Positions 6,743 through 63,897 of a DNA stretch of 64,000 nt are shown piece by piece (the first letter of the stretch is position 1; the number at the start of each line of letters is the position of its first letter). Both the position numbers and the translations under genes were made by a program. The DNA comes from Asterochloris sp. CNOR1 (Eukaryota > Chlorophyta > Trebouxiophyceae > Trebouxiales > Trebouxiaceae). Location of the stretch: assembly GCA_963969365.1 (NCBI GenBank), contig OZ017762.1:1736001-1800000 (forward strand), given 5' to 3'. The notes under the pieces are model-generated. The model had not been told where the DNA came from, did not search any database, and saw only the letters and a list, made by a program, of their open reading frames with translations.

Positions 6743-9700
6743 GTAAGCCTAACAGTGGCTGCCAGACCTCAGGCGCAATTCTTAGGCGTGGAGGTGTTAG
6801 GGAGGCTCCAGCCCAGCATACAGCGCCAGGTGCCATGCCTGTCTGCCATCTGCAGCGTCACAGAACATCTCCTGTGGACTCAGCGCATAGCTTGCTCAAC
6901 TGGTAACGTGGCAGGAGATGGCTCACTTAGAGTATGGATACATATGGTGACTGCACGTGCAGCCTAGAGCACAGACAGAGTAGAGACACCTGGTGACCGG
7001 GCCTGCTGCAGAACACTGCAAAGCTCACCAACCCTGCGGATTGCACACCTGCCGCTGCCTGGTGGCATGTCTGCCCTGTAGCTGCCACTCAGCCTCTCTG
7101 TGTTGCAGCCTTCCTGCCCATGCTCCAGGCCAAACAAGTCCACGTCTTGCATGCCAACACTGCCTTTTGGCAGACACTGGCAACATCATGTTTATCTAGA
7201 TTCATTGCCTTTATGCTGCAGGGTGCCTCAGAGCTGGTCCCGCGCATCGCAGCCTGCTTGGCGGCGCTGCCTGGAGCGGCAGTGCACCACAGCGCACGGT
7301 TTGAGGGCGCATGCATGCGCCTGACCGACGCGCTCCAGCAGCTGATGCAGCTGCCCACCCTGGAGGAGCCCCACAGGGCTCAGCTGAGCTCAGGGGTGAA
7401 GGCTCTGCTGGAAGTGGTGGTGGAGCAAGGCAGCAGGAACAGGGAGGTAGAGCAGGGAGCGACACAGAAGGGAGAGGGGAAGGATGGAGCAATTGCAGGA
7501 CTGCGGCGTGCCCTGTTGCACCAGAGCCAGACACAGGTGGGGCAGTCCTTTGTGGATGCAGGGATGGAGTGAAGTAGGAAGGGAAGGGTGGAGGGGTGCA
7601 GGGCTGTGGGGCTGCCCTGCTGCACCAGGGCCACTTGCAGGTGAAGCAGGACACTTCACGGGCTGTCTGAAATCGACAGAGGGACTTGCAGCTGCCCACA
7701 GCTGAGGCTTGCCCTGCTGCACATTGTCAGGTGAGGGCTGCAGATCAGGGGAAGAGACCGAAGGGGCCTGCTGGAGTGGCAGCTGGGTTGCGGCAGACCC
7801 AGTGGAGCTGTTGCATCAGAAGGAGTCAAGTACAGAGGTGACATTGCCCAAATCCTGCTTAATGGGGCGGAGAAGGCAGATGGTGACCCTGTGTGACACT
7901 GCCCTCCTGCTAGCTCAACATTCCCCAGCAGTTGGCCAAGGCTGTGCTGTGCCTTGCTGCACCAGCCGGTGAGGGCTGCAGATCAGGGGAATGGGCTGAA
8001 GGGGCTCCTTGAAGTGGCGGCTAGGCGGCAGCATGCTTGCAGGCATGCTGTGCCTGGTGCCTCTGCGTCAAGTCGAACTCTACCCAGAGGTGACATCAGC
8101 CACGCCCTGCTGGATGGGCCAAAGGAGGCAGATGGTGACCCCATACAGCACTGGCCTCCTGCTAGCTCAACATTTTCTCATGTTCCAGCACTTGAGCACA
8201 GGAGCCCAAGTACGTTGCCCCACCAAGAGGTTCCCAGCTGCTGCTGAATACCTGCCACACCTGCTCCATCACACAATCTGACGCCCGTCGCGCACCAGCG
8301 GCCGCCATGTCTTCTGAGACCTCACCCCCCGGCTGCTGCTGCAGCACACGGACCAGCTGCCCCTCCTACCCCAGCACGCAGCCCAGCTGATGCAGTGGCT
8401 GGCCCGGACGCAGCTGGGGCCCCGCAGGGCAGAGGGTCTGCCGAAGGGGCCAGGGGATGAGACGGCTCTGGCCCTGGCTGCAAGACTGGCGCCCTTTGCA
8501 GAACAGGAGGGCGGACATGTCAGGCTGGATGTCTGCGAGAGGCTGCTGGCGCATGCCTGCGGGTGAGGCAGTCGTTCCACATTGCAGACTGCACAGCGGG
8601 CTGCACAGCAGGCTGCTCACCGAGCAACAAGTGGCACCTTGCGCTGAAGAGGCGTGCCCAGGGCACGTTGCACCCTGTCTGGGCCAGACCGGCCACACGG
8701 TCTCAGCTTCCTGCTCTGTGTGCCAGGCAACAGCCAGTGCAATGACAGCATGACACCGGGTGCAGTGTGTGGTGGGCCACACAGCCTGGACGCCAGGCTG
8801 TGCAGCAGGGTCTCCTGCCACATGCATGCGCACCCATGTAGCAAGATGCCAGTCATCACAGCACCTACAGCGGTTGCGGGGCGCTGCAAGAGACCCTGCG
8901 GCTGCGTAACAGTATCTTCCGCTGTTCCCCACAGGGATGATGGGGTCAACTCAGAGCTGCCTGAGGTGCCTGTTGAGACCTGTCCTGTCCTGTCCATGCA
9001 GGGCGCCGTGCAAGGCATTTTTGTGTGCAACTGATGGTGCTGACCCAGCATCATCAAAGAAGTCCTGGTGCCAGCTGACAATTCCGTTCAATTTACATTG
9101 TTCTCCGGTGCCTGCAGGGCGCTGCGGGAGGCGCTGCGCCCCATCCTGTCTTCAGATGATGGCGCCGACTCAGAGGCTTCCTCAGACACTGATCTGGGGC
9201 GCATGCAGCGGCTGCCGGGGCAGAGTGTCATTCAGGCAGCAGCCTCCTTGGCAAGCGACATGGCTGTGCAGGTGAGCCCTCATCTGTTTTATCAGATCAT
9301 TAGATCACACACACTGAGGTGCACTGAGGAGGCATCTCGCAAGCCCACGCGTGTATGGACCCATGCTTGCACAATGCTCACGTGAAGGGGTGAAAGGGGC
9401 AGTGTCGTGCAGCTGAGCAAAGCGCTGCACGGTGGGCCTTTACCCAGTCTCCCAGTGGTGTACAACCTTGGCCTCACATGCGTCCAAGACAGGCCCCATC
9501 TGCACAGTTCTCACATTGAGGGCAACGGCTGCTGCACCAAGCGCTGCACAGCGGCCTCGTCGTCGCTGGCCGGGGCGGCTGCCTGGGACTCCAGCGCGGC
9601 CTCTGCCTGCGTAGTTAACAAACTTTGTCGGTAAAGAAATCTTGCTTCCTGTGGTACAGCCCAGTGATGGCTCTTTTCAAGTATTTGATTTGTTGATTAC

Positions 9701-12700
9701 CTGGCCACCTGTGTTCAGCAAGATTACATGCCTGTCTCACTTGTCTGTGCATGTAGACATGGCAGCTGGCCCAGAGCGGCTTTGCTGGTTGCTGCCAGCC
9801 CAGAGTTGACAAAGCCTGTTCACTGGCGGGCAAGAGCCAGCGACGGCCTGTGTGCTGGCTGGTCTTGCTGTTGCAGGCTCTTCCTGATGCCTGCAGACAT
9901 GGCATCAGGCCCAGAGCAGCTCTGCCAGCGCTCGCGAGCAGAGCCAGGAGCATCTGGAGGACGTGACCACTCTCATGATGGAGGCCACCGAGTCCTGTGT
10001 CTCCTTCTGCTGGGAGCTGGGCGCAGGTGGGGGCCCCTGCCATCAGCACAGCCAGTGCATTCCATCTTGTTCTTGAGGGTCCCACATGTCCCACTGGGAG
10101 CTGGGCGCAGTTGGAGACTGCCATCACAGTTTCTTATGCATTTTGTTTTTTTCTCCTGAGGGTCCCATATCTCCTCAGGACAAAGAAATAGAAATGCATT
10201 GATTGCTGGTGGGAGCTGGGTGCCGGAAGGGCATGTGAGGGGGTTCAGGGGGATCAGCAGGCCCACCCTCAGCAACTCACATCACGGCTTTCAATGCAGG
10301 GAGCAGCTGCTGCACAGCTCCGGCTCTGGTCATTGCTGGCCTAGGGCTGCAGCACTCATACACGCAATGAGTTCGCAGCCCCTGTTGCCATAGGCCTGGG
10401 AGCGGAGGCTGTGCTGGCACAAACCCCTGAGTTGATCGTGAATGCAGTGTCTGCCATGGGCACATGTCATGGAATCCAGCACTCTAGGCCAACAATGATT
10501 TGTAAGCTGGTCATGGCCCCTGTGTGCCGATGCACCTGTGTGGTAGCCCGTTGAGACCATCAACAACTGAGGTCATGCCATGCAGGTGAAGCAGCCTCCG
10601 CACAGGTCATGTTGCTGGCCAACGCAGTCATCCGGGAGGCGCAGCGCCTCTGGGTGACCTGCACAGAGGCGCGCCTGCCCCTGCTGCCTGATATGGTGTC
10701 CCGTCTGCGAAGCCTGATGCTCAGCGTGGCCCGCCTGTCCGAGGGAGAGCTGCTCAGGCGCACAGCCGACCTTCAGGTGTGCTGGGTCTGTGCCAGGCGG
10801 CACCCCTGTGCCGCCTGTGCAGCCTGAGTCTCAGCGGGGTTGGCCTGGCGGAGCAGAGATGCTCAGGCGCACCATCATGGACTTGCATGAGTATGATCCT
10901 GTACCATGTGGCACACGCCTGCCTGCGCAGCCTGATGCTTAGAGTGACCTGCCTGTCCAAAGGGGAGCTGCTAAGGTGCACAACAGACCTTCAGGAGTCA
11001 TGCATCGAGCGTGTGTATGTGTGTGGCCGACAGTTGTACTTTGCAGCAAGCGGTGGCCCGCTGCCTATGGCAGTGACAGAAGCAGAAGCATGATGGTGCC
11101 TGTGGGCACTTGTCTCTGTCAGTCTATTGACGACGGCCCCCACCCACCATGAAACAGGCCCCAGGCACAGCTTTCAGCTAGAGTTGTTGGCCCACACCAG
11201 CCAAAGCTGGCAGGCGGCAGCAGCGCAGATGTCCCCAACGAAATCAGCGTTAAGAGTGAGCGCTGACCACACCCTGTCCCTGCAGCCGGGACCAGCGGTC
11301 AACAGCGCAGCGCGGCAGGTGTGGCGATGGGAGCTGACCAACGATGCTCCCCCGTCACCCACTGGCCCCCGCCCCCAGGCCCAGCTGCTGTGCCGCAGCC
11401 TGTCAGAGGCTCTGTGCTCCATGCTGGCCGCCAGCTGGACCTGTGGGGGCAGGGCGAGCGTGAAGGCCAACTTCGCGCCGCTGACCGACATGAATGACTT
11501 CTCTGGGGCAGCCGTGACAACCGCTGAGCAGCAGGTCAGTTGGGCGGTCACAGGCGTGCAGCGGAGGCTGGCCCTCCAGCCAGGCTGGCTCAGGGCTGTC
11601 GTCACACAACAATGAGAGGCTTGACGGTCACAGGGGCTTTTGCCTCTACAGCTAGGCTGCAGGCACACACCGCAGTGCTAACATGCCAGCATCCCAGGAC
11701 CTGTGAGAAGTCCAGTCAAGGGTAGAGACATTGTAATTGGCCAGGAGAAGGCCCTTGTTTGCACAGTTATCCCATTGCAAAGAAATGCTGAGGGCAGCTG
11801 TGACCACCCGCATTGAGCAGGCGGTTGCTGGACTTCTTCCATGCATGGACTTGTTGCAACCCAGCAGCCGAGCTGCACAGCGTGCAAAGCCTCTGTATGG
11901 GCCTACATGATGACGTGGCTACCTGAGGCAATCCAGGCGGTGACACCACCAGTGAGGGCTGGCGCTGCCTGGCCATATGCTTGTACGTACCCACAACGTT
12001 TTGTTGTCTGGTGCAGGCCGTGGTCTTGACGCTGGGACGTCTCTGCTGCATCATTGAGGCCGCTCAGCGGGAGGCAAGTGAGCCGGACGAGGAGCTGGCC
12101 AGACTGGCAGTGCCTCTCCTGGTGGACACTCTTTCTGGAGAGGCCTCGGGATCGGTGGCCCACGTGCATGCGTGCGGGGTCTACGTGCTTGGCTGCCTCG
12201 GCGTGCTCTATGGCAATGGGCACTGCAGGTGCTCGAAGTAGTCACTCCAAAGTCTTTGCTGGCCCTTGTGCACGACGATGTCGGCGCTTGCAGGCTTGGC
12301 TGCCCAGGCAGCACAAGCATCCACAGACACACATGGGCGCATGCATAGGCGCTGGTGGCTGCAAGTTCAAGCATCAGCAGGCTGCTGTAAACAAAGCTGC
12401 TGTTGAAAACACTATCCAACGAAATACAAGAAATGTCATTGCCTGTGCTGCAGATGGGCCCATGAGCAGGTGGTGGAGGCTCTGATCAAGGTCTACAGGA
12501 ACCCTCAGGGCAGGCTGGCTCAGGGGCTCATGTTCAGCAACAAGGGTGCGCCCTGCCCTGGGGTGCTGGCGCAGGCCCTGCTGCAGATGGCTACAGAGCT
12601 GCAACACGATCGCCTAGACTTAAGGTGAGCGCGGCAAGACCCTGTTACAGCACTGAGCTGCTGTTGTCACAGTGCCTTCCTGGGGTGTGGAAGGCCTCTG

Positions 12701-15700
12701 AAATGAGTTCAAGGCAGGCAGACGGTTCATCAATCGATGGTTGAGCAGTCCAAGGAGCAGGCCCCTTGCTGCCTTCAGCACTGTCAACGCTCAGGCTGCC
12801 TGACGGTGTTAAGTGCCAGCTGCCATATCTGGGCCAAGTTGCAGAAGTACTGGTTGCCACATTTCCTCCACCTGGAATCTTGGCTGTGCACCATGTGGCT
12901 CTAAGGAGGATCAAAGAAAGTAAGACCTGCCCGAGAGCGCTGTCCTGAGCAGGCAGCAGCTGACCCCGCGTCTGATGTCTCTGTCAGCTGATTTTGGCCC
13001 TCGTGCTGCACTTACGCCTGGCCTCAGTGGTCCTGCAGCACGCTCATCGCATTGGGCTGCTGCTCCCTATATGCAGCATCTGCACACAAGTTCAAAAGTT
13101 TTGCCATCCCTGGCCGAGGGCCATGCATCTTGCCTGCTCTGCTGTCCTGCTGAGCTTGCTGAGCTGCCATGTCTGCAGACAGGAGCTGCGCATGAGCCTG
13201 CTGTCCCTGTGTGTTGACACTGACCACCTGCCCAGCAGGGTAGGCGGCACCACGCAACACCTCCTGACAAATCAGGGTTGCCTGTGCTGCAGGCAGGATG
13301 CTCATGCCTGCTGGTCCTCTTCACGGATTGTGGCTTGAGCACCATGCCTGGCAGCCCTGCTGAGCTCACTGAGCCGCTATGTCTGCAGGCAGGAGTTGCG
13401 CACGCGCCTGCTTTCCCTGTTTGCGGATTTTGGGTCCCTGGCACAGCAAGGTGGGCGCTACCAGGACCTGGGCGCTCTGCTGCCTGTGATTGCTGCCAGC
13501 TCAGAGGGGCTGCAGCCCATGAGCGGCGTGGCACAGTCCAGCCACAGCATGAGCTTTGACCATCTGACCAGCCTGAGGGAGGAGGACACCAATATTCTCA
13601 AGGTCTGCGCTTTGCAGGTCTAGGGTCTGGGGTTATGGCTTCCGTCTGACGGGGCGGCGCCTCAGGCCCAGCAACGCTCACATAGGCACAAGTCTGCTTT
13701 GGGGTGTACGATTTGTCACAGACACCATGCCTGCCCCCCAAGTTCTGCATGCATGCAGCTGTCGCGCCTGCTGCAGCTAAGAGAACGCGCCTTTCACCCA
13801 AACTGCATCATCTGGCTTCCCTGCTTGCGACGCGCTTGTCCTGCGCACCACTTGCAGCTGCCTTCTGCTGCGGCTGTGCTCGACCAACTAATACCTCTGC
13901 CTGCTGCCCTTGCTGTGTCACTGAGATTCACCATTGACCTGAAGCTCATTTCACCGATCCTGGCCTGTCCCTGATGCTTGCAGCTGCTCCCCTACGCCTT
14001 CCTGCTCTCGTTGCCTGCAGCTGTGTCCACCTGATGTGGGTCTGCTCCCTTGAAGCACAGAAACCCTCTATCTTTGTCCGTCCTCCCGCTGGATCAGTGC
14101 CACTGCATACAGCTGTTTCACCCTTCTTGCGGACCTGGCCTGTCCCCAGTGACTGCAGGTGTTCCGCCTCCTATGGCTGCACTTTACCCCGTACGAGCTG
14201 GCAGCTGTTTCCACCTTCTCATTGACCTGGCCCGTCCCTGCTGGCTGCAGCTGTTCCGCCTCCTGTGGCTGTACTCTACCCTGTACGGGCTGGCAGGCCT
14301 GGGCACCAGGGCAGACCAGTACCCATACCCTGAGAGCTGGCGCTTGGCGCTTGGCAGGATTGCAGCAGCTTCCCCCTTCCTGGTGGCAGGTCAGTCTGGA
14401 GCAACCTGCTCCCATCTGTTGTGGCATGACAGCTTGCTGGCTTGCCTTGAACCAAAGGGTTACATGTTCCTCAAGACGTGACGGTTGGCGCCAGGTAGGA
14501 GTGCAGTTGCCTGCCCTTCTCTGGTGGCCAGTGAGTCTGGATCGAGCTCCTCCCATTCTTCAGGGGTTAGGCAGGATTGCAGTTGGAATTCTCCGGCGGC
14601 AGGTCAATGTCAGGCATCTACAACGCCTAGTGACCTCTCTGTCTGGCGGCTGTTGCTGGGCTGGCAGCTCAGTCTGCCTACAGGCTTGGTAACGAAAGGT
14701 TTTGAAGAAGTCTGAGGAAAAACAATTATCATCCAGCTTAAGTCTCAACACGCCCCATCAAAGCCCTGGAGGATTCTTCTGCCGCCTGCATGCGGTGCCA
14801 ACAAGACCTTTCAACAAGCTGCGACCATGCTGTTGCCGTGTCTCTTACCCTTTTTATTGGGAGCAAGCACCTGCTGTCTGCAGGCGGTGCTGGGGAGACC
14901 ACAGAGAAGCTGGAGGCCGAGTTCGGGGAGCGCCTGCAGCGCTTGGGCTCCGCTGGAACGCCTGCAGAGCTGCACAGCATGTTGGTGGACACAGTCCACA
15001 TGCGGGTGGCTGCACCCTACATCCCCTCCGCTGCGCGGACTGCCCACCTGCTGATCACAGCGGCCATTAACCTCGTCCAGGTTGAGGTGGCGCCGCTGCC
15101 TGATGAGGCCGCGCTGTCGCCGCTGGCCCCCCTGCTGGCACAGCAGCAGGTGTGTCTGGGGTGCATGCTGCAGTATCCTGGACGGCAGATTTGAGATGGC
15201 GTCCCTGGCTGCAGAAGCTGCCATGTTGCTGCTGGCTGCCTCCCTAGGCGCAGCAGCAAGTGTGTCCCGCCTCTCAAGTGACATTCTCAAGACAGGGCAG
15301 CACAGAGCAGGCACCTGTCTCTGTAGCATCCTGTGGGCTGCATCCTGTGTGTCAGGCCGTGCTGTACTGGCAGCTGGGGGGACACAGCCAGGCCTTCACA
15401 GCAGCAGGCGCGTGTAGCGCAAGGGCAGATCTGCATCGGGCACAGCAGTACAGTCTACGCTAGACCTGTTTCCCTTCCTGATCGTTCACACAGCACAGCT
15501 GCCCTGTGACCATGGGATCCAAATTCCAAGTAGATCTTGTGTGCCTTCTCAGCTCCTCACATCCTGCATGCAGGTGCTGTCTGGCACTGCAGCCACCAGC
15601 GACGGGCCTTGGCTGGAGGCCATCACCGAGAAAGCGTTTGAAGTGTACTGCGAGCGCCTCAAAGGGTTCAGCTGGGCCTTCAAGGTAGGGTCTGTAGTAC

Positions 15701-18700
15701 CCTGATGCAGAGGCAGCTTCATTCTGATGTCGCATCTGCTGGATGCAACAAAGTGCGCGCCTTTGATGAAGGATCAGCCGGGACAGTCCCCGACGCAAGC
15801 GGATGTCCGGTCTCAATGTCTGGTGTAGAATTGTGACTCAAAAGTCACGGGCACCAGTTAATAGGGATCAGAACAACATTAGCAGCACCGGGAAGCGCAC
15901 ATCTAGAGGTCTGCCTCACCGTACCACTCCCCCACTTAGCAAGTCAGCAGTGTTTGACCTGTAGGCTTACGATGCTGAACAGCTGGAGCCACGAGTGGCC
16001 TGCTTGCCTGAATTGCAGCTTTAGACATTGCCGAGCAGCTGCTGCGCTGCTGCATCTACACTGCTACAGCTGTGCTGCCCGTGCAGGCCGACAACGCTGA
16101 GCAGCTGGTGCCCTGCCAGGAGGCCCTGGCCGAGGTGCTTGTCGAGAATCTGACGCGGCGCAGTGGCAACCAAGGCGTGGCACTCCTTTCCGACAGGCTG
16201 TTGAAGGCAGGTCAATGTCGTCTATCATGCCTTACTACTGCAGTCTGGTCATGGGCCGCGTCGGGCAGGTGATTCAGGGCAGCCTGGGTGTTTCTGGGGT
16301 GTACTGTGCTTCATCCTGCCGTGTGTCTGGGGGGTACTGTGCTGCATCCTGCCAGACAGCAAGATTGCTCATCTGAATTGCTCTAGCAGAGGACACTTTC
16401 TAACAGGCGCTGCTGGCCCCTGACGGGAGCCTCAATGGGAATCGTTGCATCCAGCTGCGCGCCCGGCAGCTGAGCCGTTCTGACTGCCTGCAGGCGCTGC
16501 TGGCCCAGTTTGTGGGCCTGCACTGGAGCCTTCGCATCCTGACCAAGCTCATGGAGGTGGTCCAGCTGGAGGAGGACACCCAGTTCCTGGCTGAGACTGC
16601 TGACCCGCTGCCGGCTTGGAAGTGGACACAGAAGGTAAGTTGTTTCACACATCGCAGCTACTCAGCCGTGTCACATCTCTGTTTCGAGACGTGCATTATT
16701 TTTGGCACTGTCCTTGGACGGCCTCGTGCTGCATGCTCTGCAGCCTCCCCCTGTGCAGGTGATGGGGCCGCCTTGGGACTGGGGGCTGCACCTGCTCCAT
16801 CCTTACCCTTGATCCTTCACAGAGTGTGCTGCCATAGCTGCAGATCGTTCAAGCTTGCGCTGATGCAGCCCAGAAGGTTCACCAGGCCTCGATTCACAAG
16901 CTGTGCTCAGGCAGTTGAGCTGCCTGTTCTGGGAGCTGTGCCTGCACATGAGCCCTGGATCCTCCCTGCATCCACTCCCAGCATGTGCTCACGTAGCTGC
17001 AGGTCATCGAGGCCGGCGCTGCCCTTGCCCCAGGCTTCACTCAGGCCCTGATTCACGAGCTGCTGCATGCTGAGTCCCCTCGAGCGATGGATGCTGTGAC
17101 GGTCCACGCAGCTGACCTGCTGGGCATGTATGACGCCGCCGCCAGGCTGCATGAGGTGGCCTTCCTCGAGGAAACCGTGGGGGGTGAGCACATCTTGGTA
17201 ACCTGCTGTGACACCACATGCCTTCGTCTGCAAAGGGGAGGCAGTGTTGCTTAGCCTCAGCCATCAATGGCTCCATGTGCCGTGCAAGGAGTACGGGAGG
17301 TGGGCACCAATGCATGTAAGTGGTCCTTCTCTGCGTACCATGCGCAGTGTGCCCAGGAGGGCCGGTGGGTAGTCGAAGCATGTGTCTAGGGGTGTATGGA
17401 CTTGCTGAGGTGTATACACCTGTTCTAAAGCCAGTGCCTTCGCGCAAGGGGTTGCCAGGCAGCGTCACTGTCTGGGCAGACCCTGGGGAGCTGAGCTGGC
17501 TATCACCACAACAGGGTGTTGTGCTGAGAGTTCAGGCTGCAACACCAGGCATCCAGGCCTGCAACCTCTGCTGAGAGAGTTTGTGAGGGCGTCTGCGGCC
17601 CTCAGACGCCACTTCCCTGGGGCCCTACTGTCTTGTTGCAGCAGCAATTTACTGCTGAACTCCACCTATGAACAGACGGACTCCTGAAAGTAGAAACCAA
17701 CAAAACTATCAGTATGTGCCACTGCTGCAGGAGTGCGGGCGCTGAACCAAAAGTCCCACTATCGCGGCATTGTGTCGGGGCTGCAGAGCCTGGCGGAGGC
17801 GCAGAGCATGCCCAGCTCCCAGGTGCCCCAGCAGGCGGCCGCTGCCCTGCAGGACGCTGTCAGGCAGCATGCCCCCATGAAGCAGGTGGAGGATCGGTGA
17901 GTGTTCCGCCCGCATTCCTGTGTTCTGGAGGAATGGAGGGGCAGCATGGCCATTACATGGCCGGAGAAAGAGGATCAGCTGGATACTTTGTACAGCTGCT
18001 TGCGGCAGCATTGCATTTGAAGCAGGTGCAGGTCTTGCCATGATGCAAGGCCGCCATTGATTGCCAGCCTGGGAGGACACTGTTGGCCAGCATGACCCCA
18101 CAGAGCAGGTGGAGCACAGGTCTGTGCCTTTTGCAAAGGCTGCAGATTGACCTTCAGCGCAGTGACAGCAAAGCTATTTTGCACGCATCCTGTGGCAACA
18201 CTGCAAGCATGCAACTGCCTTGCACCTGCCAGTCAACTTGGAGTTGCGCATGGAGTACACTGTTTATCCAGGCATTTCAAACTGCTTGCTTCCGGCTCCA
18301 GGCGGATGGTAAGATGCCACAGCCTGGATTCAGGCCCGTCAGACTGTCAGGCATGCTGTGCATGTTCCCTGACTGTGCAGCGCCAGCTCATTGCACTGAG
18401 GTTTCGCTGCTTGCTGGCCCAGCAGACAGCACAACCATGCTGTGCAGGTACCTGCAGGCAGCAGCTGCCCTCACAAGCTCATATCACCAATGTAGTGCCA
18501 CTTGCTGGCCCAACAAACACTGCACCCATGCTGTGCAGGTACCTGCAGGCAGCAGCTGCCCTCGTCCTCTATCCTGACTGCTCAGCGCAGCACCAGCTCA
18601 TGGCGCTGTTGTGCCGCGTGCCAGCCCAGTTCCTGACCCCAGCCATGATGCGCCTGGCGACTGCAGCCTGGCACTGGATCTGTGCAGCACAGCCCCGGCT

Positions 18701-21700
18701 GCAGGTGAGTCAAGTGCTGTTGGATGGGTGAAGCAGGTCGCGACAGCACCTCTATCAGGCACTTCCATCTGACATAGGCTGCTTGTGAGGCGTCTCAACT
18801 GGAGTTGACTAGGATGAAGCAGGGCACAACAGCATCTCTGCCAGGCACTTCTGTCATCAGACATAGGCTGCCTGTGAGGCGTCTTGAATGGAGTAGGCCA
18901 GTGTGAGGCAGGGCGCAACAGCATCTCTGCCAGGCGCTGTCGTCAGACATAGGCTGCCTGTGAGGCGTTTTTAAGGGAAGGCAACTGTCACTCTTTGCTG
19001 AGCAGGATTCAAGCGCCTCCACCAGGCCAGGAACACCACACAGCACATGCATGTCACAGCTGAGGCTGCAGCAGCCTGGCAATGGGTCTGTGCACCACAG
19101 ACTTGGCTGCAGGTGGGCTCCCTTCTGCGTAGCATTGCGCCTGCATGGCAAGGGCCAGAGCTGGCTGAGGCCCCCAATGTCTCCGGCTGCAGGTGGGCAC
19201 GTGTCTGCCTGACATTGTACCTGCCTGGTCCAGGCCAGGTTGCAATGGGAGCCACAGCAGCCTGTCCCTGAACGGTGCAGCGCAGCCTTGGTTGCAGCCA
19301 AAACCCTGGCTGGATTGCAACTTCTCTGCATGGCACAGACTGGATGTAGCTGGGCACCTGAGGCTTCACACTGCATGTATGCAGCATAGGCTGCTGGTGG
19401 GGATCTGTGTCCTCTCTGGGGCAGATTCTCTCTGGGGCAGATCCTCTCTGAGTATTCTCTCTGGGGCAGATCCGCTGTGGGGCAATCCTCTCTGGGACAG
19501 ATCAGGCCGACCTTAGAGGTTGCCAAAGCTTGCTGTGGATGGGAGGGTAACCCAGTCCTCTGCCGTACAGCTCTGCCTCTCTGCAGGCAGAGCTGTATGG
19601 CAGAGGATATAGGAGATGTCTGACTTGGCCTGCCTAGACATGCTTCACCCTACCACTGTGCACTCTCTGCAGGCGATGCTGATGTCAGAGATGGCAGAGG
19701 CCTGGATCGCAACTGTGAGCAACCGGCTAGGCCTGTTTGACTGTAGCTTTGATGCAAAGGCCTACAAGGAAACTCCTGCCGGGGACGCCATCGAGGACCG
19801 ACCCAGCGATCAGCTGCAGCAGCCACAACACAGTATTGTGGAGGCCACCGCGGCCCACCACATCTGGCTGGCCTTCCTCCTGCAGGCCTGGCAGGTGAGC
19901 TCTCCATAGGTCTTGAAATCTGCATTTAAAGCTGTAACTGGTGTAGGCATCCCCATGACGTAGTCACAGGGATATAGCAGCCTCGACCTACCTGCGAGCA
20001 CAGTCAGGCTTCTTGGGCTGTCGGCAGGCACGGAGCTTGGGCTGTCTCCGCAGGCTCTGAACCTGGATTGTCTGCAGGCACTGAGCTTGGGCGCCTCACG
20101 CCTGCAGCGGGCCGTCAGTGGGACCTTCACGCGCCTACTGCAGAACAGCATGAGCAACCTGGAGGGTTTGACACAGCACCCAGCCGCAACTGGTGAGTCT
20201 TCTCTGGGCATGTTCGTCTGTGCATCGTCAGCACACAAACTTTGCGGCAGCAACGCTGTGACGTCATGCAGCCTCTACTGGTGCACTCAGTGCTGGAAAC
20301 CTTGCCAGCTGGGTAGGGCACTGCTACCCAAAGCAGGAGCCAAAAGGCCTCCATATATGGAGGCCTTGAAGGGCAAAGTAGAAGCCAAATCTGCCTTCAA
20401 ATTGTTGAATTTGCACTTCAGTCTACCAGGGAAGAAAGTGACTGCTGCCGCTGGCTCCCTGCCACTGCAAGTAGAGCCAGATAGACGGCATTCAGCGCAA
20501 ATTTGCTGTGCATAACCACGAGTCAAGATGTTGCTTACCACTGAGCCGCGGGAGTGTGCTTCCACCTGCTGCCGCTTGCCCAGCGCTGCCAAAAAAAAAT
20601 TGATCAAGCTACTCTTTGGTGCTTCTGCAGGAGCTCACGCCTCAACCTGCTGCTGCTGGCCCATTGCCGCTCTAGGTTGCTTACATTCAGGAACAACTGA
20701 CTGATGGGCCTGTGGGCGCAAGGTCTGCAAATCACTGATCAGCCGATTGGTGCACCTGCAGGGGCACGATTCCGCCTGCTGCTGCTGGCACTGCGTCACT
20801 GCAAGCAGTGCCAGGCAGATGCGACCCAGCGCGGCGTGGCGGCCCCCTTTGCCACGACGATGCTTCTGGAGAAGGTGCTGGCCATCGCCCTGCAGTACTT
20901 CCAGGCGCCCCCAGCCTGGTATGGGCGCTGGACCAAGTCAGAGGCCAGGTCAGTTGCAACTTCCTGTTGCCGACAACCATGTGCCCATGCCAGCAGGGAG
21001 AAGCTGAAGCTTTGGTGCACGTGACATGGCCTTGGGGGTTGTGCTTGCTCACAAGTGATATGGCCATGCTGGCAGGGAGGAGGCAGAGGCGGTGACCCAG
21101 TATGCTGAAGAGGTGGCTCTGGATTCCATATGGCCCCAGCTGCCCCGGCAGTTCTCGCAGCAGGGCATGGCAGTCCCCTCGGCGGCGCAGGCGCACCCCG
21201 TCTGGGGTCGCAGCCAGCAGGGAAACCAGCAGCGGGTGGAGCTGCTGCACCTGCTGCTGCACAGCGAGGCTGAGAGGCTGGCCATCTGGGCAACCCCGCG
21301 GGCCAGCAAGCTGCGCTCCAGGGTGAGCGCCTTTGTGAGTGGTGGGCAACCAATTGTAAAGGATGAAATGGGCCAGGTATCTGAGGATGTCATAAAACCA
21401 GGTTGGTCTGGCCCCATAGAACTGCTACACACTGCGTCAGCGCGGCAGCAGTATGCATTGCAGGAAGAGCCTGCAGCTGGTGCTCTCCACATCCAGCAGT
21501 GGAGTTCAGAGGTGAGCCCGCATTGTGAAGATGTAGCTCTGTGAGGCTGGCCATCTGGGCGACTCTGCAGCATCTTTGTGCATGTTCATCAGAGCTGTAT
21601 GCAATCTCTGGTGAAGGATATCATGAGACAATCACAATTGGTCAGCAGCTGGCTGCCTGTCCAGGGTTGGTGGGTGACAGTGGGGCATGGCATTCCACCA

Positions 21701-24700
21701 TTCTGCTGCTCATGTCCTCTGCTGCACACAGCAGCAGAGTCAGGCTGCTGCGCGGAGTGGGCGTGCAGTTTGTGGCTCGGTATCTGCAGCAGACAGATGA
21801 TTTTGAGGTCAGGCTGCATCGTGGAGGCTGGCCATCTGGTCAACCCATTGCAGGCCGACCCCACCACGTCATCTGCCCCAGGTGTTGTGTGTGGAGGCAG
21901 CCCATTGCCTGCCAATGGCTGCAGGTGCACAGTGCGCACGTCAATACCCCAGCTACTCAAACCTTGCACTCGTCACATGTCCTGTCCCAGCTGCTGCACA
22001 TTGCAGTTCATCCTTTCATCTGGCTGCACCATCAAGACCCTGTGCGGCCCTTCCTTCTTCTGAACCTCTGCACCCCTGACCCATGTCATTGCGCGCCTGC
22101 CACAGGTGGTGCGCGTTGCGTCCCATGCTTCCCAGTGGCTGCACCTGGATGCCTCGGGGGACACCCGCATCCGCCTGAAGCACATTCCTGCCGGCGTCTG
22201 GCAGCAGCACACGCGCATGGCCTGGGACTGCGACCCCCGCATGGCCCTGTGCCTTCTGGACCGGTATCCCAAGGCAGAGGCAGTTCGTCAGGCAAGTTAC
22301 GCTGTGGGAGCTGCTGCTGTTGCTCTGGCCGCTGCTCCAGAAGGTCACTGCTGTCTGAAAGGAACACATCTGCTCAGCTTGGATCGCAATTGTTGCATGA
22401 CCCTGTGCCTGCTGGAGATCTGTCCTGGGGCACAGGCGCGCCCCAGGCAAGCTGCTGTGATGAATGCTGCTTTTTTTAGGAGGTGTTCTTGGTTGGAAGC
22501 ATGACATGTGGATGGGTGACCCTTCAGCCCACATGCCCCATGTGCCTGCATAGAAGCTGTCCCTAAAGCAGATCACTTGGCCACCAAATGCTTGCCACAT
22601 TGGTCACTTGGGCATGCCAGATGGAGACAGCCAGGCATCTTTGTGCCTGTCTAGTTTTGGCTGCATTTGCTGCTTGCTCCAACGTGGCAAGCGGCATTGG
22701 CAAATAGCTGTAGGTCACTGGCTGCTGCACCTGCTTTGCTGCCCCACAGCAATGCCCCCTAAGGGCAGAGTTTCTGAGCTGGTAATGCCTGGAAGGGTAT
22801 TTTATTTATATATATATATTTTATATTGTACTTCTGAACTCTGCAGGAGTTGGAGACGTTGGTGCTGAAAAATGCCCACCAGCCCTCCCTTCAACAGCTG
22901 GCTGAGGCTGCCACCATCCTGGCCACGCCTGGGGCAGCTGCCAGCAATGCTCCTGAGGTGCGCAGGGAAGCTCAATGCGTTGTTGGTGCACGGCAACTTC
23001 CTGCTCGAAGCACAGGTGCTCTTCATCATGTGTCAACTTGTTGCTCGAAGGAATTGCATGCATGAAAGGCATCAGGTAGGTGAAGGTGACGCCTCTCAGG
23101 TCCTGCAGACTGACATTGCCATAGGCTGATCATTGGGAAGCTCAGCACAGCACACTTTCAGATGCATACTGGATGTGCGCAATAGCTTAGCATGTTGTGA
23201 TGGGCAGCTGGACCCTTTTGAAAATGCAGTAGGGGCTAGCCATAACATGGTTGCCTGCATGGCTTCCTTTCAAAATCTGTGAATAGTTGCAGCCCTCGGT
23301 CGCAGTCCTGCTGTACTGTCTTCTGCACCCCTCTTGTCCCCATCTGAATGGAAATCCCCGACATTCAGCAAAACAGCAGAACACTGCAAGGCGTGCCACT
23401 TGGCAGCCTGAGCAGTCAGTCCCCTGCTGAGTGCCATGGCCAAGGTCAATCCGCTTCCATTGGTGTATGTCACCACTCTTGGAACCCCACCCATGGGACC
23501 AGTGCCTGTAGGGGGGCCACCTGGCAGTCTGGACAGGCAGCCGCCCGTTGCAGGCCACAGATAGACCCACCCCACTCACTGCCTTGTCTGGCTGCGCAGC
23601 ATGTAGACATCTGCTGTGAATGCATACCCTCCAGCAAGACAGCCCATGAACTGGTGCCTGCAGCTGAGCCACCTGGCGGTCTGGGCAGTCAGCCCCCTGC
23701 TCCAGGCCACGGCGCTCATGGCGGGGCCAGCCGGCGCCAACCACACAGTACGCGCCTACTGCTTGCGCAGTTTGCAGGCGACGCCCCCTGAGCAGGTGGG
23801 TCCTCCCTGGTTTCCCTGCGTGATGATGAGCCTGGTCTAATGGCTAATTCTTTCTATGTATCATGCGACAAGCAGACACTACTGAGAAATCTGTGTTGGC
23901 ATGCGTGTATGGTGCGTGCAAGAAGCGCAGTGCCTGGTGGTCAGCTTCTCACGGCTCAGCCAAAGCAGGCCAGAAGTTTGCCGCTGTGCAGGCGGTGGTC
24001 TCCCTGCCCCAGCAGCCAAGAGGGATGCCCCTGGATCTGCTGTGCAGGTGGCATTCTTCCTGCCCCAGCTGGTGCAGCTTCTTCGCGCCGACGAGGGTGG
24101 CATGATCCAGGACTTCCTTTTCACAGCTGCTCGACGCTCAACACTGTTTGGCCACAAGCTGATCTGCACGCTGCGGGTGAGACTGAGCGAATGGTGGTCA
24201 TGCTGGTCAGGCAGGACAGCTAGTCTGCGTGGGTAAAGGCAGTCAGGGCTTAGGGCTGGTTTGCACCTGAGGGTCAGAATGGCCAATGTCGGGGCAACAC
24301 ACGTCATTCTGTTTGGCCAAGAGGTCATTTGCCAGCAGGCGCTACTGCCACCAAGGATGCAGACCAGCTTCTGGCCAGATGGAAGTGACTTGTGTTGCCA
24401 CAGGTGGCCTGCTACTGCCTGCATTGTCAGCTGCACGTGTGAGGGCATTCCCTCTGGCAGAAGACAGGGCCAGCCTTCAAGCTTTGCCTGCAAGCTATAC
24501 ACGGGCTGCCAGTGCAGCTCTCAGCCTCGGGTCTGCATGTTGTCTCTGACAGATTGCAAGTCCCCACTGCTTTGCCGCCCGCAGTCTGAGGGCACTCCAG
24601 ATGCGGAGGAGATGTCTCCAGTAGTCAAGCGTTCAGGGTGGAAGCCTCCCAAGGACACCGGGCTGTGGGGCATTGCAGACAGAGTTGGCGAGCAGGTGGG

Positions 24701-45500: not shown

Positions 45501-48500
45501 TCCGCTGGTGTTATGCAATGATGATGTCGGCAGGCTGCTGGTTCCCCTGTCCTGCTCCTAAACTGTGGAGAGGCCTGTGCACACCAGCAGCCACAGCCTC
45601 TGATTGACAGAATGTGTGGTCCGTGCTGCTGCAAATTGCTGATCCTGTCAAGAGGTTTGGAGGTGCCTGTTTAGATCAGCTGCCCCTATCCTGCTCCCCT
45701 GTGTTGTACAGGCCTGTGCCCCACAGCCTTTGTTTGAACAAACCTGTGATTCTGTGCTGCGGGCTGCTGATCTTGCCAACCATGGAGGTGCCTGTGCAGA
45801 CCAGCAGCCACAGCCTTTGGTCGACATAAGTTGTGGTCTATGCTGCAGGGCCGCTGACACTGCCAACTTTAGGGGTTTCTGTTCAGCCCAGCAGCCGCTA
45901 ATCTGCTGCCCTGCTGTAGAGAGGCCTGCGCAGACCAGCAGCCACAGCTTTTGGTTGACAGAACTTGTGGTGTGTGCTGCAGGCCACTGGTTCCGCCATC
46001 CATGGAGGTGCCTGTCCCAACCAGCAGCCGCAGCCTGCAGGTGAATGTGCCGTCAGCCCCTGATGCGGAGCAGCCTGAGCATGGTGGTGGCGCCTTCTAC
46101 AGTCCTGCCTCCAGCTTGCACGAGGGCAGCAGCCCAGGTGAGACGTCCCCTGCTGAATGGCAGTGTGCCCAGTGAGGGCATCTGCTTGCGACAAAGCCTG
46201 GGCAGGCACGAAAGGATCACTGCAGAGCTTGCTGGGCTGCAGCACCTGCTGCTTGTTGCCACTCTCAGAAGCTTGCTTGGGCTGCGACAACTGCTGCCTG
46301 CTGCCACTCATACACCTGTCTTATATGAAGTCGTGCCCAAGGCAGCACAATTGTTTGGGGTTCAGGGCCGCTGCAGGATAGGAGAAGCCGGTTTCACCAC
46401 TTCAGCCCTTGGGGCGTTGACACTTAATTCCCCTGAATGCAGCCCTACTTTCACGAAACAAAGAGAATCTGCTCTGCGGGAAGTGTGCTGCTCCAATGTG
46501 TTTCCTGGGGTTGCAGGGCTGCCTCAAGGAGGTCAGGAGTTTTAGCTCTGCAGATGTGGTGACAGTGCAACGGTTCTGGGTGCAGACCTCCACCAGGAGT
46601 CATGGTTGTGAGGCAACTGTGCTGACATTGAGTTCCCTGGGACGCAGGGCCTCAACAACGGGGCACTGAGTTTGCACGGGACAGGAGCCATGATGACTCG
46701 GGGGCCCCCAGTCTGCCAAGCGCATCTGCACAGCCAGCTGCTGCTGGCGCTACAGGTGCTGGCAGGCAGGCTGCTGTCAATCTGATGGATTCAGACATGG
46801 ATGCTGCGGGTGAGGCACAAGAGAACACGTGGCTCAATCCCGCAAAACCAGATCTGGTACGCAGTCTGCCTCTAGGCTGATGAATCATGCATGCCAGCTG
46901 CGTCACGGGCGATCAGTCAAGAATGGTGGAGGGGTGCTCTTGTGCAGACCTGCTTGCAGCCACATAATCTATGCTTACGGTGGGGAACCCCCTGAACAAG
47001 ACCTAGTAGGAAGCTCTCTGACTGCACTGCAGACTTGCATGCATAATGCATGGCCAAGCTCTCATCAGCTGACTGTGGTTTGACACCCTGGTTGTAGGAG
47101 CCTGAACCCCAGTCTTCTGTGCAGCAGCGGCTTTGGGATGGCCACGTATGCCTTGCTTGACCTTCACAAATTGTCTTTGAGCAGCGCAGATGCCGTATCA
47201 ACACTGTGTTATGTCAGCATCTTGTACCACCTGCAGAGGCACAGGAGCAGTCCAGCAGCCCTGGACAAGGCTCGCATCAGCAGCAGCCGCCTGAGCAGCG
47301 GGAGGTGGCAGAGCAGCAGGAGGGTGCAGTGCAGGATGCGGGGCATCTGGACGTAGCACCTGCCACCAACAGGTGTGGCCGTGGTGCTGCTTGGGCGGTC
47401 TTGGTGCTGCATGGGTGGGCACCACCATCAGCTATCTAGAAAGGCCCAATTTAGTCAACTCTGACTGTCTGCAGCAGTCCCAGGGGAGCGTCCTTTTCTG
47501 TGGTGCTTTGCTTTGTCAGCTGGCATAGTCACAGTCGTGCTGCTAAGCAGATCATGCCCTGGGCACTGCATGCCTCCTAGCTGCCCAATACCGCTCTGTG
47601 CCGCTGTCAATACAGACAACAATCGAGACCACCCTTGAGCTGGATGTGCAATTGTTCTGGGGGAACTCGCTGGGGGAACTCGCTGGGGGAACTCGCTGGG
47701 AAGGGTGCTTCGCATTGTCGTCTGACGCTGTGACAACAGTGCTGTTTCACAGATAAAGCTTGGCCAGACAGTATGCCTCACAGCCGCCCACACAAACCCT
47801 TGCAGCGCTAGGATCCAGAGCACTCCTGCTACATCATTCAGATGAGCTTCTTTGACCAGATCTCATGTCTGCAGGGTACCCTCGGAGCTGCAGCAGTTGG
47901 CAGCCTTTTTGCGAGCTGAGCAGCGGCTGCACACCCCAGGCCTATTCGTCAGCAGCGCGGACCACGTGTTGGCGGCACCCCGGGATGCAACGAGCAGTGT
48001 GACCATGAAGGGCAGTGGGGCCGATGCCATTCGGCTGGTCAGGCAGGCACTTGATAAGGGGCAGCAGGTCCGCCCTTGATTCTCTCTACCTGCCTGAGTT
48101 TGCTGTTTGCTTTGGTGCAGATGGCTCCTCTGCATGAAGAGCTCGTGTCTCTGCTGTTTCCAAGCAGCATCAAGCTGTGCTCAGTCCTTCTGCTGAAATG
48201 TCCCTGGGCCCTCTGGCATTTGCTGAGATGTCAAAGTTCAACAGCAGGCTGCAGGGCTCAGCAACCTTTCTCAGGCTATGCACACACACAAAAGGTCTTG
48301 CTTGTGCTGCGACTTGCGCACTAGCAGCTGAAGGACCTCGCACAAGTTGGGACTCTGATGTCGATACCTTTTCTGTGGCTACCCTTGAGCAAACGCGAAG
48401 GCTTTGCATATTGAAATCGCTGCTACTCAATGCATGATTGTCACATGCTGTCCTTTCCTCTGCAGATACCTCCACAGACCAGCCCCCATGATGTGGCTGC

Positions 48501-56470: not shown

Positions 56471-56740
56471 CCCATCAGCACCTCAGGTACATGAATGGGG
56501 ATCACCGTTTGCAATCCCGGTCCTGAGCATGCTCACATCTCTGCCATGACACAATACAGGCTTTGGATGGACAAGCGCATCAGCATGGCCTCCAAGAGAG
56601 TCAGGTCCCATCATCAGCACCTCAGGTACATTAATGGGGATCACTGTTTGCGACCCCTGGCCTGAGCATGTTCACATCTCTGCCATACTATTTTACAGGC
56701 TTTGGATGGACAGGCGCATCAGCATGGCCTCCAGACTGGA
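56471..56740 (+). repeat. ~130-bp direct duplication including an exon-like end
   Basis: Units 56471-56597 and 56607-56740 match at about 90 percent. Each ends with tacaggctttggatggacag or a one-base variant, then gcgcatcagcatggcctcca, i.e. an acceptor plus exon start (in one frame LWMDRRISMASR). Confidence 0.9.
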
Positions 56741-56762
56741 CCTTGTCCTCTGACCAGACCAT

Positions 56763-57159: not shown

Positions 57160-57619
57160 AATGACCTTGCCCTTCTCCTATTGCATCACACAGTGGTGAA
57201 GGTGTTTGGTGGATGGCACATATTGCCTGAGGTCATTTCCATGGCAAGGGTTGCAGGCTGTCATCTGGTGGCACCAGCTCTGGACCACATTTTACTGATA
57301 TATGGTAGCACTGACTTGATAAAGACCCATGTCACCCACTTGCACCCCCACCTTAAATGTTACCAAATGAAGTGTGGTGGCCATTGTGACTCAGAACACC
57401 ACAAGGTGGGGACTGAAGCTCTGCCTGGAAGACACAGACCCAAAACAAGCCAGACACCACTGGCATGGTGCTGAGCAAGCAGCTCTTGTCTTAGCCATTC
57501 ACTGGTCGCAATCTGCTCAATTGCAACTGTCTGCTGCGGGACAGCACAAATCTTGGTTGGCCATAGGTGCGTATCGCATGAGCTGAGGCGGAAGGCAGGC
57601 AATTTGCACATGGCACACT

Positions 57620-57897
57620 GGCTGCATGCTGCATTTTGAGGGACTGCAGCGCAGCTGCTGCGCTACGGAGTTTTCATTCATCAATCTAGCTGAGTGGTAC
57701 AGCGCATCACTGCTGCCAGCTTTGGCGGCCAGCACAGCAGGCACCAGCTGCTGCAAGCTTCCAGGAGCTGACTCTTTTCTCCTGCCCAGGCCAGGCCACG
57801 ATTGCAGACTGCACAGAGTGTTACAGAGCTGCAGAAGATGGCTGAGCACATGAGACGAGTTGCAGAACGCCGAGCGCCCGTGGCTTCTCTGATGTTG
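57620..57897 (+). pseudogene. Decayed copy of the 5-phosphatase 3' end
   Basis: 57820-57897 aligns with the terminal RhoGAP-like exon at 49570-49650: VTELQKMAEHMRRVAERRAP against VTELQKLAERMTLVAERRAA. Upstream, gactgcagcgcagc and the ccaggccaggccacgat region correspond to intron sequence 49480-49565, so a genomic segment, not an mRNA, was copied. The Gly-His-Asp-Leu start of the exon is lost, and the end diverges after the RRA codons. It lies 8.2 kb downstream of the parent. Confidence 0.8.
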
Positions 57898-62100: not shown

Positions 62101-63897
62101 TGCCTGCAGCTTGCTGCATACATGTTTCCCGGGCGCCTCCTCTCTGCAGGCCCACCACGACTTTCGCAACCACACCGTAAAGAAACCACTTGCCTCTGCC
62201 CTCGGAGAGCACCCGCTTCACGTGCAGGTCCCATTGTATCTGCCTCAGGCGGCGCCATGATGAACCTCCCACCTCTTTCAGGCCAGATGAGCGCTGATGC
62301 CTGGATGGGCCCCGGGGGCAGCATACCTGCCCTGAGGCCAGGCAGCACGCTCACCCCAGGTGAGCACTCTCTTGCTCTGGCCTGTGGCAGCAGCATTTCT
62401 GCCGCTAGGCCAGGCACTACCCTGTTGCCGTGTGAGTGAGCCCTCTTGCCTCATCTTGCCCCTGTCCTGTGCATGGTGCTGCTGTCACGGGCAATGGCAC
62501 AACGTTGTTGTTATGTGGGGAGGTCACCGTCCTTGTTTATCTGGACTTGAGAGCAGCTCCTCTACTAGCCGTTGTCAAGTCTCTACTGGGCGCCTTCATG
62601 TCTGCAGGGGAGCTGCTGTCACTGCTCAGTGGGGTCACAGAGAGAATTTGAGCTGAAGTGTGCCCCCTCATGCTGCAGAGGTGCCGCTGGCAGTCAACAC
62701 TACCCGCCTCCAGGCCTCCGATGGCACAGTCTCCATAATGCCAGGGATCAGTGTGTGGAGCCCATGGGCTCAGCAGCAGCAGCAGCAAATGCCACCGCCA
62801 CAGCCACTTGGGCAGGAGCAGGGTGACCATGTGAGTCATCTGTTGCAACTGCATGCAGGAGCACTGACGTCGCACTTTGTGGGCTTGCCTTTACTGTGTG
62901 TGGCCTGCTGTCAGCTCAGCAGGCTGCTGCTGTTCATTCCATCTCTCCCCGAAAGGTGTCATGTCAAGCCAGGCACATGCAGCTACAAGCTGCAACACCT
63001 GGGCTAGGTTGACCTTGGCCTGTGCAGGATCTGCAGCAGCAGCTGCTGCAGCAGGCCCGCCTCCTGGAGCAGGTGGCAAGCTCCCCTTCGGCGCTGCAGC
63101 AGGGGTTCAACTCCCTGCGCAGCAGGAGCGTCGAGGGGCCCACAGCATCTCAGCAACAGCATCATCAGCCGAGCTCACCGCGCAGTCGTAGCTTTGACGA
63201 AGCCGGGGGGCGCCCTGGGCAGCCTCTGGGGAATACCGGGCTGAGCCATGGCGGGCATCAGGGTTCCCGCCACTCTGGGTTTGACATGGCGGGTGCTGGC
63301 CACAGCCTGGCGGGCATCCTGGGCCCGGAGCAGGGGCGGGCGGACTCTGCACCCCCCACGCCCACTTGGGCCCACCAGCAGGCGGACTTTGGCCCCTTTG
63401 GCCAGCCTGCAGGCCCCCACATGGGCCCCCACCAGCAGCAACAGCAGCTGGATTTGCTGGGCAGCCGGTCTGCACCGGGCTCGCCAGCTGGGGGGCTGCA
63501 CCACCAGGGGACCTTTGGCCCTGTGCCAGGGCTGCATCAGCAGCCACTCCACCACCAGCAGCAGCATCAGGTGGGGTCCCTGGGCGGCAGCAGGTCTGCT
63601 CCAGGCTCCCCCATGGAGGGCATCGTCCAGGCGCAGGCTGCCTCACTGCAGCAGCAGCAGCCCAGCAGGTTCTTCCTGGAGCAGGCTGGGAGCAGGCGCC
63701 AGCAGCACGTGCCGGCACGAGCGCCGCCGGGAGGGCAGGCCAGGGACGGCCACCAGCAGGTTCCCTTCGACCATCACTTTGACCAAACCTCCAGCATGCC
63801 CATGTACCATCATCAAGGAAGCATGCTGCCCCTTGAGGTGCAGCGCCAGACGCAGCTGCCTGGGTCTCTCATGGTACCTCCCATGCTGCCTGCTCAG
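59127..63897 (+). CDS. Ser/Gly/Gln-rich protein of unknown function (3' end beyond window)
   Basis: Exons inferred from phase: 59127-59289 (LQELLVPSPGSPRTLVG..SMMEELMKALG), 59722-59860 (STPTFGGGGGSLFKDG then an acidic Ala/Glu helix), 60982-61116, 61504-61819, 62228-62359, 62679-62830 and 63028-63897. The last five join cleanly. Exons between 59289 and 59722 are uncertain. The protein is low in complexity: poly-Gln with Pro (WAQQQQQQMPPPQP), a coiled-coil-like DLQQQLLQQARLLEQV, then repeated SRS(A/F/V) boxes (LRSRSVEG, PRSRSFDEAG, GSRSAPGSP twice) and many His-Gln runs. Such architecture is common in RNA-granule and scaffold proteins, but I see no domain that proves it. The reading frame is open to cag|gtagga at 63897 and continues past the edge. 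Confidence 0.6.
61504..61590 (+). repeat. Tandem duplication at an exon start
   Basis: ctgcagggacatggcagcat then ctcaagctcgg (61498) is repeated 66 bases later as ctgcagggacgtggcagcag then ctcaagcatgg (61575). Both have an acceptor and both stay in frame, so either could be the true exon start and the two might be alternative acceptors. Confidence 0.8.
62366..62427 (+). repeat. Decayed copy of the end of exon 62228-62359
   Basis: cagcagcatttctgccgcta and ggccaggcactaccctg then tgtgagtg mirror cagcatacctgccctga, ggccaggcagcacgctc and ccag|gtgagc of the exon end. Confidence 0.8.

What the first reader, a model, noticed from the sequence alone, without database searches (positions are those of the whole stretch)
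7222..62427. Introns built from decayed copies of their own flanking exons
At least twenty introns in three genes hold one to four degenerate copies of the adjacent exon end or start, usually with the splice junction and some intron sequence, and always in the same orientation and close by. Examples are the PI4KA exons at 10586, 13389, 18539, 22106, 23664, 25704, 26842, 27420, 28885 and 29724, and the 5-phosphatase exons at 37471, 39799, 40784, 43147, 44626 and 45983. Copies range from nearly open to barely recognisable, as if produced continuously. I know of no organism described with this as the dominant source of intron length; that is a limit of my knowledge, not proof of novelty.
Basis: partly seen in the sequence, partly recalled or inferred. 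Interest (0 to 1): 0.82.

Follow-up and report, generated by a model that had tools for sequence, protein, structure and literature searches.

The report
Introns swollen by copied exon edges
In this green-alga-like genome many longer introns contain worn-out side-by-side copies of the exon edge next to them, best explained by short tandem duplications across splice junctions that were spliced out and left to decay; each step is of a known kind, but the scale is unusual.

Summary
In two modelled genes (PI4KA, OCRL-like 5-phosphatase) 21 of 44 introns hold a decayed copy of their own flanking exon edge. Local direct repeats at lags 25-700 bp number 53 in the window and 65 in 18 other loci, against 0 and 0 at lags 3025-3700. 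All 31 mapped junction copies in the two genes follow one rule: donor copies downstream, acceptor copies upstream (38 of 41 in 14 loci). This fits head-to-tail duplications, mostly 75-300 bp, across a splice junction with the outer site still used. Steady production is unlikely: 0 of 92 pairs are at least 90% identical (simulations of steady production give 15-21%). Dominance is not shown: 18-22% of intron bases here and 7.9% of non-exon bases in 14 loci are detectably duplicated. Exon-targeted copying is not required. By sizes the genome may be Asterochloris. Seven topical literature searches showed no such bulk process, but key papers were not held.

The parts
10586..10776 (+). PI4KA exon; its 3' end plus donor is the parent of two copies
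10807..10998 (+). two copies of the 10697-10780 exon end and donor (lags about 109 and 218)
12949..13010 (+). copy of the acceptor and start of exon 13389 (lag 437)
13141..13252 (+). copy of acceptor and start of exon 13389 (lag 210, 76%)
14110..14204 (+). head-to-tail copy (unit 92) of acceptor and start of exon 14251
14474..14556 (+). copy of the end and donor of exon 14251-14389
15191..15266 (+). copy of the end and donor of exon 14884-15149
16755..16903 (+). copy of acceptor and start of exon 17003, mostly intron part (unit 156)
18067..18126 (+). copy of the end and donor of exon 17731-17896
18387..18472 (+). copy of acceptor and start of exon 18539 (unit 91; 90% over 63 bp)
18703..18978 (+). 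tandem array (unit about 86-89) beginning at the donor of exon 18539-18704
19064..19115 (+). copy of the end and donor of exon 18539-18704 (lag 408, 83%)
20442..20498 (+). copy of the start region of exon 20762
22353..22474 (+). copy of the end and donor (GC donor kept) of exon 22106-22291
23384..23558 (+). two copies of acceptor and start of exon 23664
25948..26256 (+). three copies (lags 149, 271, 383) of the end and donor of exon 25704-25874
26719..26763 (+). copy of acceptor and start of exon 26842; this intron holds copies of both flanking exons
27596..27681 (+). head-to-tail copy (unit 88) of the end and donor of exon 27420-27556
28780..28835 (+). copy of the start of exon 28885 (approximate limits read from the sequence)
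   Evidence: by eye; (score 24, best other exon 20)
29377..29598 (+). copy of the acceptor region and start of exon 29724 (lag about 190)
37294..37449 (+). two copies of acceptor and start of the 5-phosphatase exon 37471
40068..40280 (+). two copies (lags 104, 258) of the end and donor of exon 39799-40016
42987..43087 (+). head-to-tail copy (unit 103) of acceptor and start of exon 43147
44762..45015 (+). copies of the end and donor of exon 44626-44721 (lags about 90, 179, 268)
45544..45980 (+). array of copies of the acceptor region of exon 45983 (lags 133, 220, 348)

Best explanation
Short tandem duplications (detected at lags of about 60-600 bp, most often 75-150) arose within genes. Those wholly inside an exon were presumably lost to selection. 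A duplication crossing a donor leaves exon-end/donor twice in a row; one crossing an acceptor leaves acceptor/exon-start twice. When splicing keeps the outer site the mRNA is unchanged, so the inner copy becomes intron, the intron grows by one unit, and the copy decays. Repeats of this give arrays of two to four copies. The exon parent is held by selection while intron-only pairs decay on both sides, so old duplications stay visible mainly where they touched an exon. The rate of such larger duplications was probably higher in the past. Shown: the copies, their lag and direction rule, some clean head-to-tail units, the decay, the scarcity of very young pairs. Inferred: that the outer sites are the ones used (phase and homology, no RNA), neutrality, and the past decline in rate (the least certain part). 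Unknown: the molecular cause; lagging-strand flap or break repair is a guess from memory.
For: Excess only in direct orientation and at short lag: 53 against 0 and 65 against 0 at score 26 or more; lag spectrum falls near background beyond about 600 bp apart from a 1-1.5 kb peak in the window that holds the 1.3-kb duplication at 2767-5519. Direction rule 31 of 31 and 38 of 41, 29 of 29 in the earlier BLAST set. 15 of 110 pairs abut within 10 bp; length/lag ratios do not differ significantly from a simulated tandem process at decay 0.25-0.35 (KS p 0.10-0.21; p 0.004 at decay 0.15). Mismatch rates by codon position 0.235/0.201/0.292, exon-to-copy changes led by C>T and G>A (34 BLAST pairs, some overlapping). 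Exon side of copies more similar than intron side (72% and 64%, controls 58% and 57%). Introns with a copy are longer: median 602 against 402, p 1e-4; 12 of 12 introns of 550-700 bp, 0 of 6 under 250 bp; in 18 loci 0 of 54 under 250 bp, 16 of 83 above. In RuvBL2 (L015) two copies that my gene finder read as exons fall between residues 407 and 408 of a solved homologue.
Against: No RNA data. Models are mine: hand-placed in the window, ab initio in the loci. The window is richer than the rest (45% against 12% of introns by the same kind of test). Three of 41 junction copies in the loci break the direction rule. Head-to-tail fits exceed chance only modestly (15 against 9.4 by permutation, p 0.04), and the observed median length/lag ratio (0.55) is below all five simulations (0.68-0.77). 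The past-decline part rests on simulations with chosen, not fitted, parameters, and no setting fits everything: pairs at least 85% identical (7 of 92) lie between bursts (0-3%) and constant production (27-34%); intron-only families (11 of 59; 2 of 24 here, 9 of 35 in loci) exceed every burst setting (0-13%) and suit constant growth from short introns (22%); 15 of 16 burst settings predict more coverage than seen, and the one that does not has introns averaging only 264 bp.
Confidence: 0.8

Rival explanations
1. Exon-targeted copying: a process (for example RNA-templated or break-repair copying guided by the transcript) that preferentially copies exon edges into the neighbouring intron.
For: In the curated spans 29 of 37 pairs and 22 of 24 families include exon sequence; an earlier BLAST catalogue gave 32 of 34 pairs, 15.5 expected at random.
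Against: Random tandem duplication with conserved exons gives a comparable bias in several simulated settings. In 14 other loci 22 of 55 pairs are intron-only under the ab initio exons. The direction rule and the head-to-tail units follow from tandem duplication without targeting.
Confidence: 0.1
2. Alternative or mutually exclusive exons: the copies are duplicated exons in use.
For: Some copies keep splice dinucleotides (11 of 18 donors, 12 of 13 acceptors in the window; 9 of 17 and 15 of 24 in the loci); non-synonymous and stop differences are slightly below expectation.
Against: Copies are mostly exon edges, not whole exons; they differ at all codon positions; copy splice sites score below the real ones in 25 of 31 and 32 of 41; in the RuvBL2 case the homologue has no residues for them.
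Confidence: 0.05
3. Intron gain by tandem duplication of an AGGT exon segment, so that the intron itself is a copy of exon.
For: Same mutational class; documented elsewhere (PMC3443670, passages seen).
Against: The predicted anchored similarity (intron start to downstream exon start, intron end to upstream exon end) is not in excess: 0 of 195 and 2 of 195, 1.1 and 1.4 expected.
Confidence: 0.03
4. Same tandem mechanism, but produced at a constant rate up to the present.
For: Constant growth from short introns matches the intron-only family share (0.22 against 11 of 59). Short-unit repeats (12-15 bp) at 100% exist. Two young pairs (93 and 96%) lie in the mobile-element-like locus L013.
Against: 0 of 92 pairs at least 90% identical (2 of all 110, both in L013) and 7 of 92 at least 85%, against 15-21% and 27-34% in constant or equilibrium simulations.
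Confidence: 0.25

Closest known systems
Junction-crossing tandem duplication in the potato RdRp gene (Ma, Lan & Niu 2016, PMC4974935; abstract and Results section read)
   Same: Tandem duplication of the 3' end of an intron with the start of the next exon; splice signals duplicated.
   Different: One recent event in one gene that created a new intron and added exon. Here dozens of old events in which the inner copy appears silent and the existing intron gets longer.
[quoted passage not shown] Hellsten 2011 and Gao & Lynch 2009 known only from its reference list, not held)
   Same: Local tandem duplication inside a gene tolerated because splicing removes it.
   Different: No new intron made of exon: anchored test negative.
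Short tandem duplications as a mutation class (recalled; PMC2374710 and PMC6380325 seen in a search listing only)
   Same: Adjacent, same-orientation duplication.
   Different: Lags mostly 75-300 bp, kept across splice junctions in a large share of the long introns of this window.
Introners (PMC9860276, search listing and start of abstract only; their presence in algae is recalled)
   Same: Intron sequence made by copying.
   Different: Introners are dispersed and similar between genes; the five introns searched here are unique to their locus but for one 150-bp hit.

Membership tests
Tandem genomic duplication (mutation class) | direct orientation and closeness of the copies | tested here: met
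   direct orientation, short lag
Tandem genomic duplication (mutation class) | copies head to tail without a gap | tested here: inconclusive
   15 of 110 abut within 10 bp (9.4 by permutation of lags, p 0.04); most others are shorter than their lag, as decay would give
Tandem genomic duplication (mutation class) | source is the neighbouring sequence, not a dispersed repeat | tested here: met
Intron gain by AGGT tandem duplication | intron start resembles downstream exon start and intron end resembles upstream exon end | tested here: not met
   0 of 195 and 2 of 195 against 1.1 and 1.4 expected
Mutually exclusive or alternative tandem exons | whole-exon copies with frame kept by selection | tested here: not met
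   mostly partial copies, differences at all codon positions, weakened sites
Mutually exclusive or alternative tandem exons | copies appear in mRNA | not testable with these tools
   no RNA data
Introners | near-identical elements in introns of many genes | tested here: not met
   five introns searched in the own genome
Junction-crossing tandem duplication (potato type) | duplicated unit contains a splice junction | tested here: met
   29 junction copies mapped; 31 in the two genes, 41 in 14 loci
Junction-crossing tandem duplication (potato type) | a new intron is created | tested here: inconclusive
   phase and homology need only the outer sites, but no relative or RNA was available

The most novel reading that the evidence does not exclude
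A lineage of green algae lengthened many of its introns, mainly in a past period, by roughly 100-bp tandem duplications across splice junctions, with the outer splice site kept each time: a splice-junction ratchet that lets exons feed introns, a route to longer introns distinct from transposons and introners. (I lowered this from 0.45 on checking, because intron-only families and 85-90% pairs are commoner than the burst simulations give.)
Probability: 0.4. Interest if true: 0.72.

Novelty: new variant of a known kind. Interest (0 to 1): 0.55.

Why it matters
Intron lengthening is usually put down to transposons and small insertions (general knowledge). Here a plain mutational process plus the tolerance of splicing leaves a readable record in ordinary genes. 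It gives a simple prediction (donor copies downstream, acceptor copies upstream) that can be tested in any genome, explains false exons in an ab initio gene model (RuvBL2 here), and offers a way to study how a splice site wins against a duplicate of itself.

Tried and rejected
BLAST self-comparison was my first catalogue; one search showed that it missed a 63-bp, 90% pair at lag 91, so its counts are lower bounds and its shortage of short lags is probably an artefact. A first banded aligner chained separate pairs into long alignments; its simulation output is not used, and one search is cited only for one listed pair. The final catalogue is. The BLAST-based simulations are superseded. A strong claim that exon-crossing duplications are specifically favoured was dropped after the fuller catalogue and the simulations. 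Thresholds and rows dropped before counts: lag below 60 bp and score below 26 (score 24, score 22 for coverage; coverage marks both members of each pair); copies lying in exons; four loci with mobile-element-like genes (L002, L007, L013, L014) left out of the 14-locus counts (6 pairs, all in L013, two at least 90% identical); the window outside the two curated genes (12 pairs: 10 without curated exon, 2 with; 2 at least 85%, 0 at least 90%) is not in the 92. Literature: nine searches, of which searches were on the topic and on the organism; two searches found nothing and longer lists were capped. Trebouxia was set aside as the organism because its GC is about 50% (PMC12712428, passages); Coccomyxa viridis was looked at too (PMC10693582, passages).
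Full report
Where it lies. The window is bases 1736001-1800000 of contig 17 of a 56.38 Mb, 21-contig genome. Eighteen contigs are 2.0-4.5 Mb; two small ones are 43,319 and 110,056 bases, and by subtraction the last is about 215,390. GC of the window is 57%. Asterochloris glomerata is given as 56 Mb, GC 56-62% over 98% of the nuclear genome, mitochondrion 110,932 and chloroplast 217,546 bp, nine introns per gene (PMC6652019, passages seen). I therefore think this is an Asterochloris, from sizes alone; no name was available.

Gene models. I placed 43 exons by hand from splice signals and open frames; phases fit in 40 of the 42 listed comparisons, one of which spans the two genes. A small gene finder trained on them recovers 41 of 43 exactly at first and 37 in the last printed round of self-training. 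The proteins match PI4K_N, PI3_PI4_kinase, Exo_endo_phos2 and the OCRL-like ASH domain, and the PI4KA kinase part aligns to human PI4KA in two stretches without large insertions.

Is it more than chance? Yes. Windows of 32 bases with at least 24 matches are 36 to 14,303 times more frequent in the lag bins below 600 bp than at 2500-4000 in the window (a very small baseline), and 10 to 376 times in the 18 loci; the window also has a peak at 1-1.5 kb, where its 1.3-kb duplication lies. A banded local aligner with a drop-off gives, at score 26 or more, 53 pairs at lags 25-700 against 0 at 3025-3700 in the window, and 65 against 0 in the loci. By BLAST, reversed pairs under 1.5 kb number 0 in the window and 3 in the loci, against 48 and 78 forward.

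Is it the flanking exon? In 19 of 42 introns a flanking exon edge scores above all 42 other exons; reverse complements of the own exons do so in 3 of 42. Elsewhere it is 16 of 137, reverse 1, expected 3.2. 21 of 44 curated introns hold a copy.

Geometry. Mapping junctions through the alignments gives 18 donor copies, all downstream, and 13 acceptor copies, all upstream; in 14 loci 15 and 23 follow the rule and 3 do not. Fifteen of 110 pairs abut within 10 bp; permutation of lags gives 9.4 (p 0.04). Length-to-lag ratios are compatible with a decayed tandem process (KS p 0.10-0.21 at decay 0.25-0.35), though the observed median, 0.55, is below the simulated 0.68-0.77. Two introns have copies of both flanking exons, as expected if a duplication took in a whole short intron.

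Decay. Differences between exon and copy are spread over the codon positions (0.235, 0.201, 0.292), with C>T and G>A the commonest changes from exon to copy. Copy splice sites score lower in 25 of 31 and 32 of 41 cases. In L015, a RuvBL2 gene, two copies open enough to fool the gene finder lie between adjacent residues of a solved homologue.

Why exon edges stand out. In the curated spans 22 of 24 repeat families include exon, and 26 of 35 in 14 gene loci. Simulated random tandem duplication, with exons conserved and junction-crossing tolerated, gives families without exon in 22% (constant growth from short introns), 39% (longer growth), 53% (equilibrium) and 0-13% (past burst); observed 11 of 59, that is 19%. 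No exon-targeted copying is required.

Age. None of 92 pairs in the two genes and 14 loci is at least 90% identical and 7 are at least 85%; over all 110 pairs 2 reach 90%, both in the mobile-element-like locus L013. Constant or equilibrium simulations predict 15-21% and 27-34%; burst-then-decay simulations predict 0-0.7% and 0-3%. The data lie between, nearer to the burst, so I infer a decline in the rate of these larger units, not a clean stop. Parameters were chosen, not fitted, and no setting fits all measures. Young short-unit repeats do exist.

How much intron length? Detectable duplicated sequence, both members of each pair counted, covers 21.9% and 17.8% of intron bases in the two genes and 7.9% of non-exon bases in 14 loci (control 0). 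Two simulated settings with 14% and 30% detected coverage both had 23% truly duplicated, but with introns shorter than these. About a quarter in this window is my estimate; dominance is not shown. Longer introns carry the copies: 12 of 12 of 550-700 bp, 5 of 8 above 700, 0 of 6 below 250 bp.

What it is not. Not dispersed repeats or introners in the five introns searched. Not AGGT-type intron gain. Not, as far as sequence shows, alternative exons.

Known work. Junction-crossing tandem duplication is on record in potato, where it made a new intron (PMC4974935, abstract and Results read), and tandem duplication is an accepted route of intron gain (PMC3443670, passages). Seven topical searches of the held library listed no report of intron lengthening by this route on such a scale; only titles and abstract beginnings were seen for most, and Gao & Lynch 2009 and Hellsten 2011 are not held, so this is weak evidence of novelty.

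Limits. No RNA, no relative, no other eukaryotic genome to compare, one genome sampled at 18 points plus the window, which is richer than average.

Noticed in passing
window 2767-5519: A 1.3-kb tandem duplication (2767-4064 and 4200-5519, 75% identical), the largest direct repeat listed in the window.
   Followed up: no
window 49397-49649 and 57613-57891: Direct repeat pieces about 8.2 kb apart, 73-80% identical, unlike the local copies.
   Followed up: no
window 12767-12918: About 150 bp of this PI4KA intron matches contig 6 at 75%, reverse strand: a dispersed element beside the exon copies.
   Followed up: no
L002, L007, L013, L014: Four of 18 sampled loci carry mobile-element-like genes with shared reverse-transcriptase-like or recombinase-like stretches (named by eye); three of the four have no local duplications at score 26 or more with lag 60 or more.
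   Followed up: partly
L014: Lower GC (52%) with a gene that looks like a viral primase-helicase; may relate to the low-GC viral insertion reported in Asterochloris (PMC6652019, passages). Named by eye only.
   Followed up: no
window 38985-39055: Intronic inverted repeat around a GCAGCGCTGTAAAGGC-like arm, seen by eye.
   Followed up: no
L013 545-744: The youngest local duplication seen: unit about 67 bp, 96% identical, at a predicted exon end in a mobile-element-like locus.
   Followed up: no
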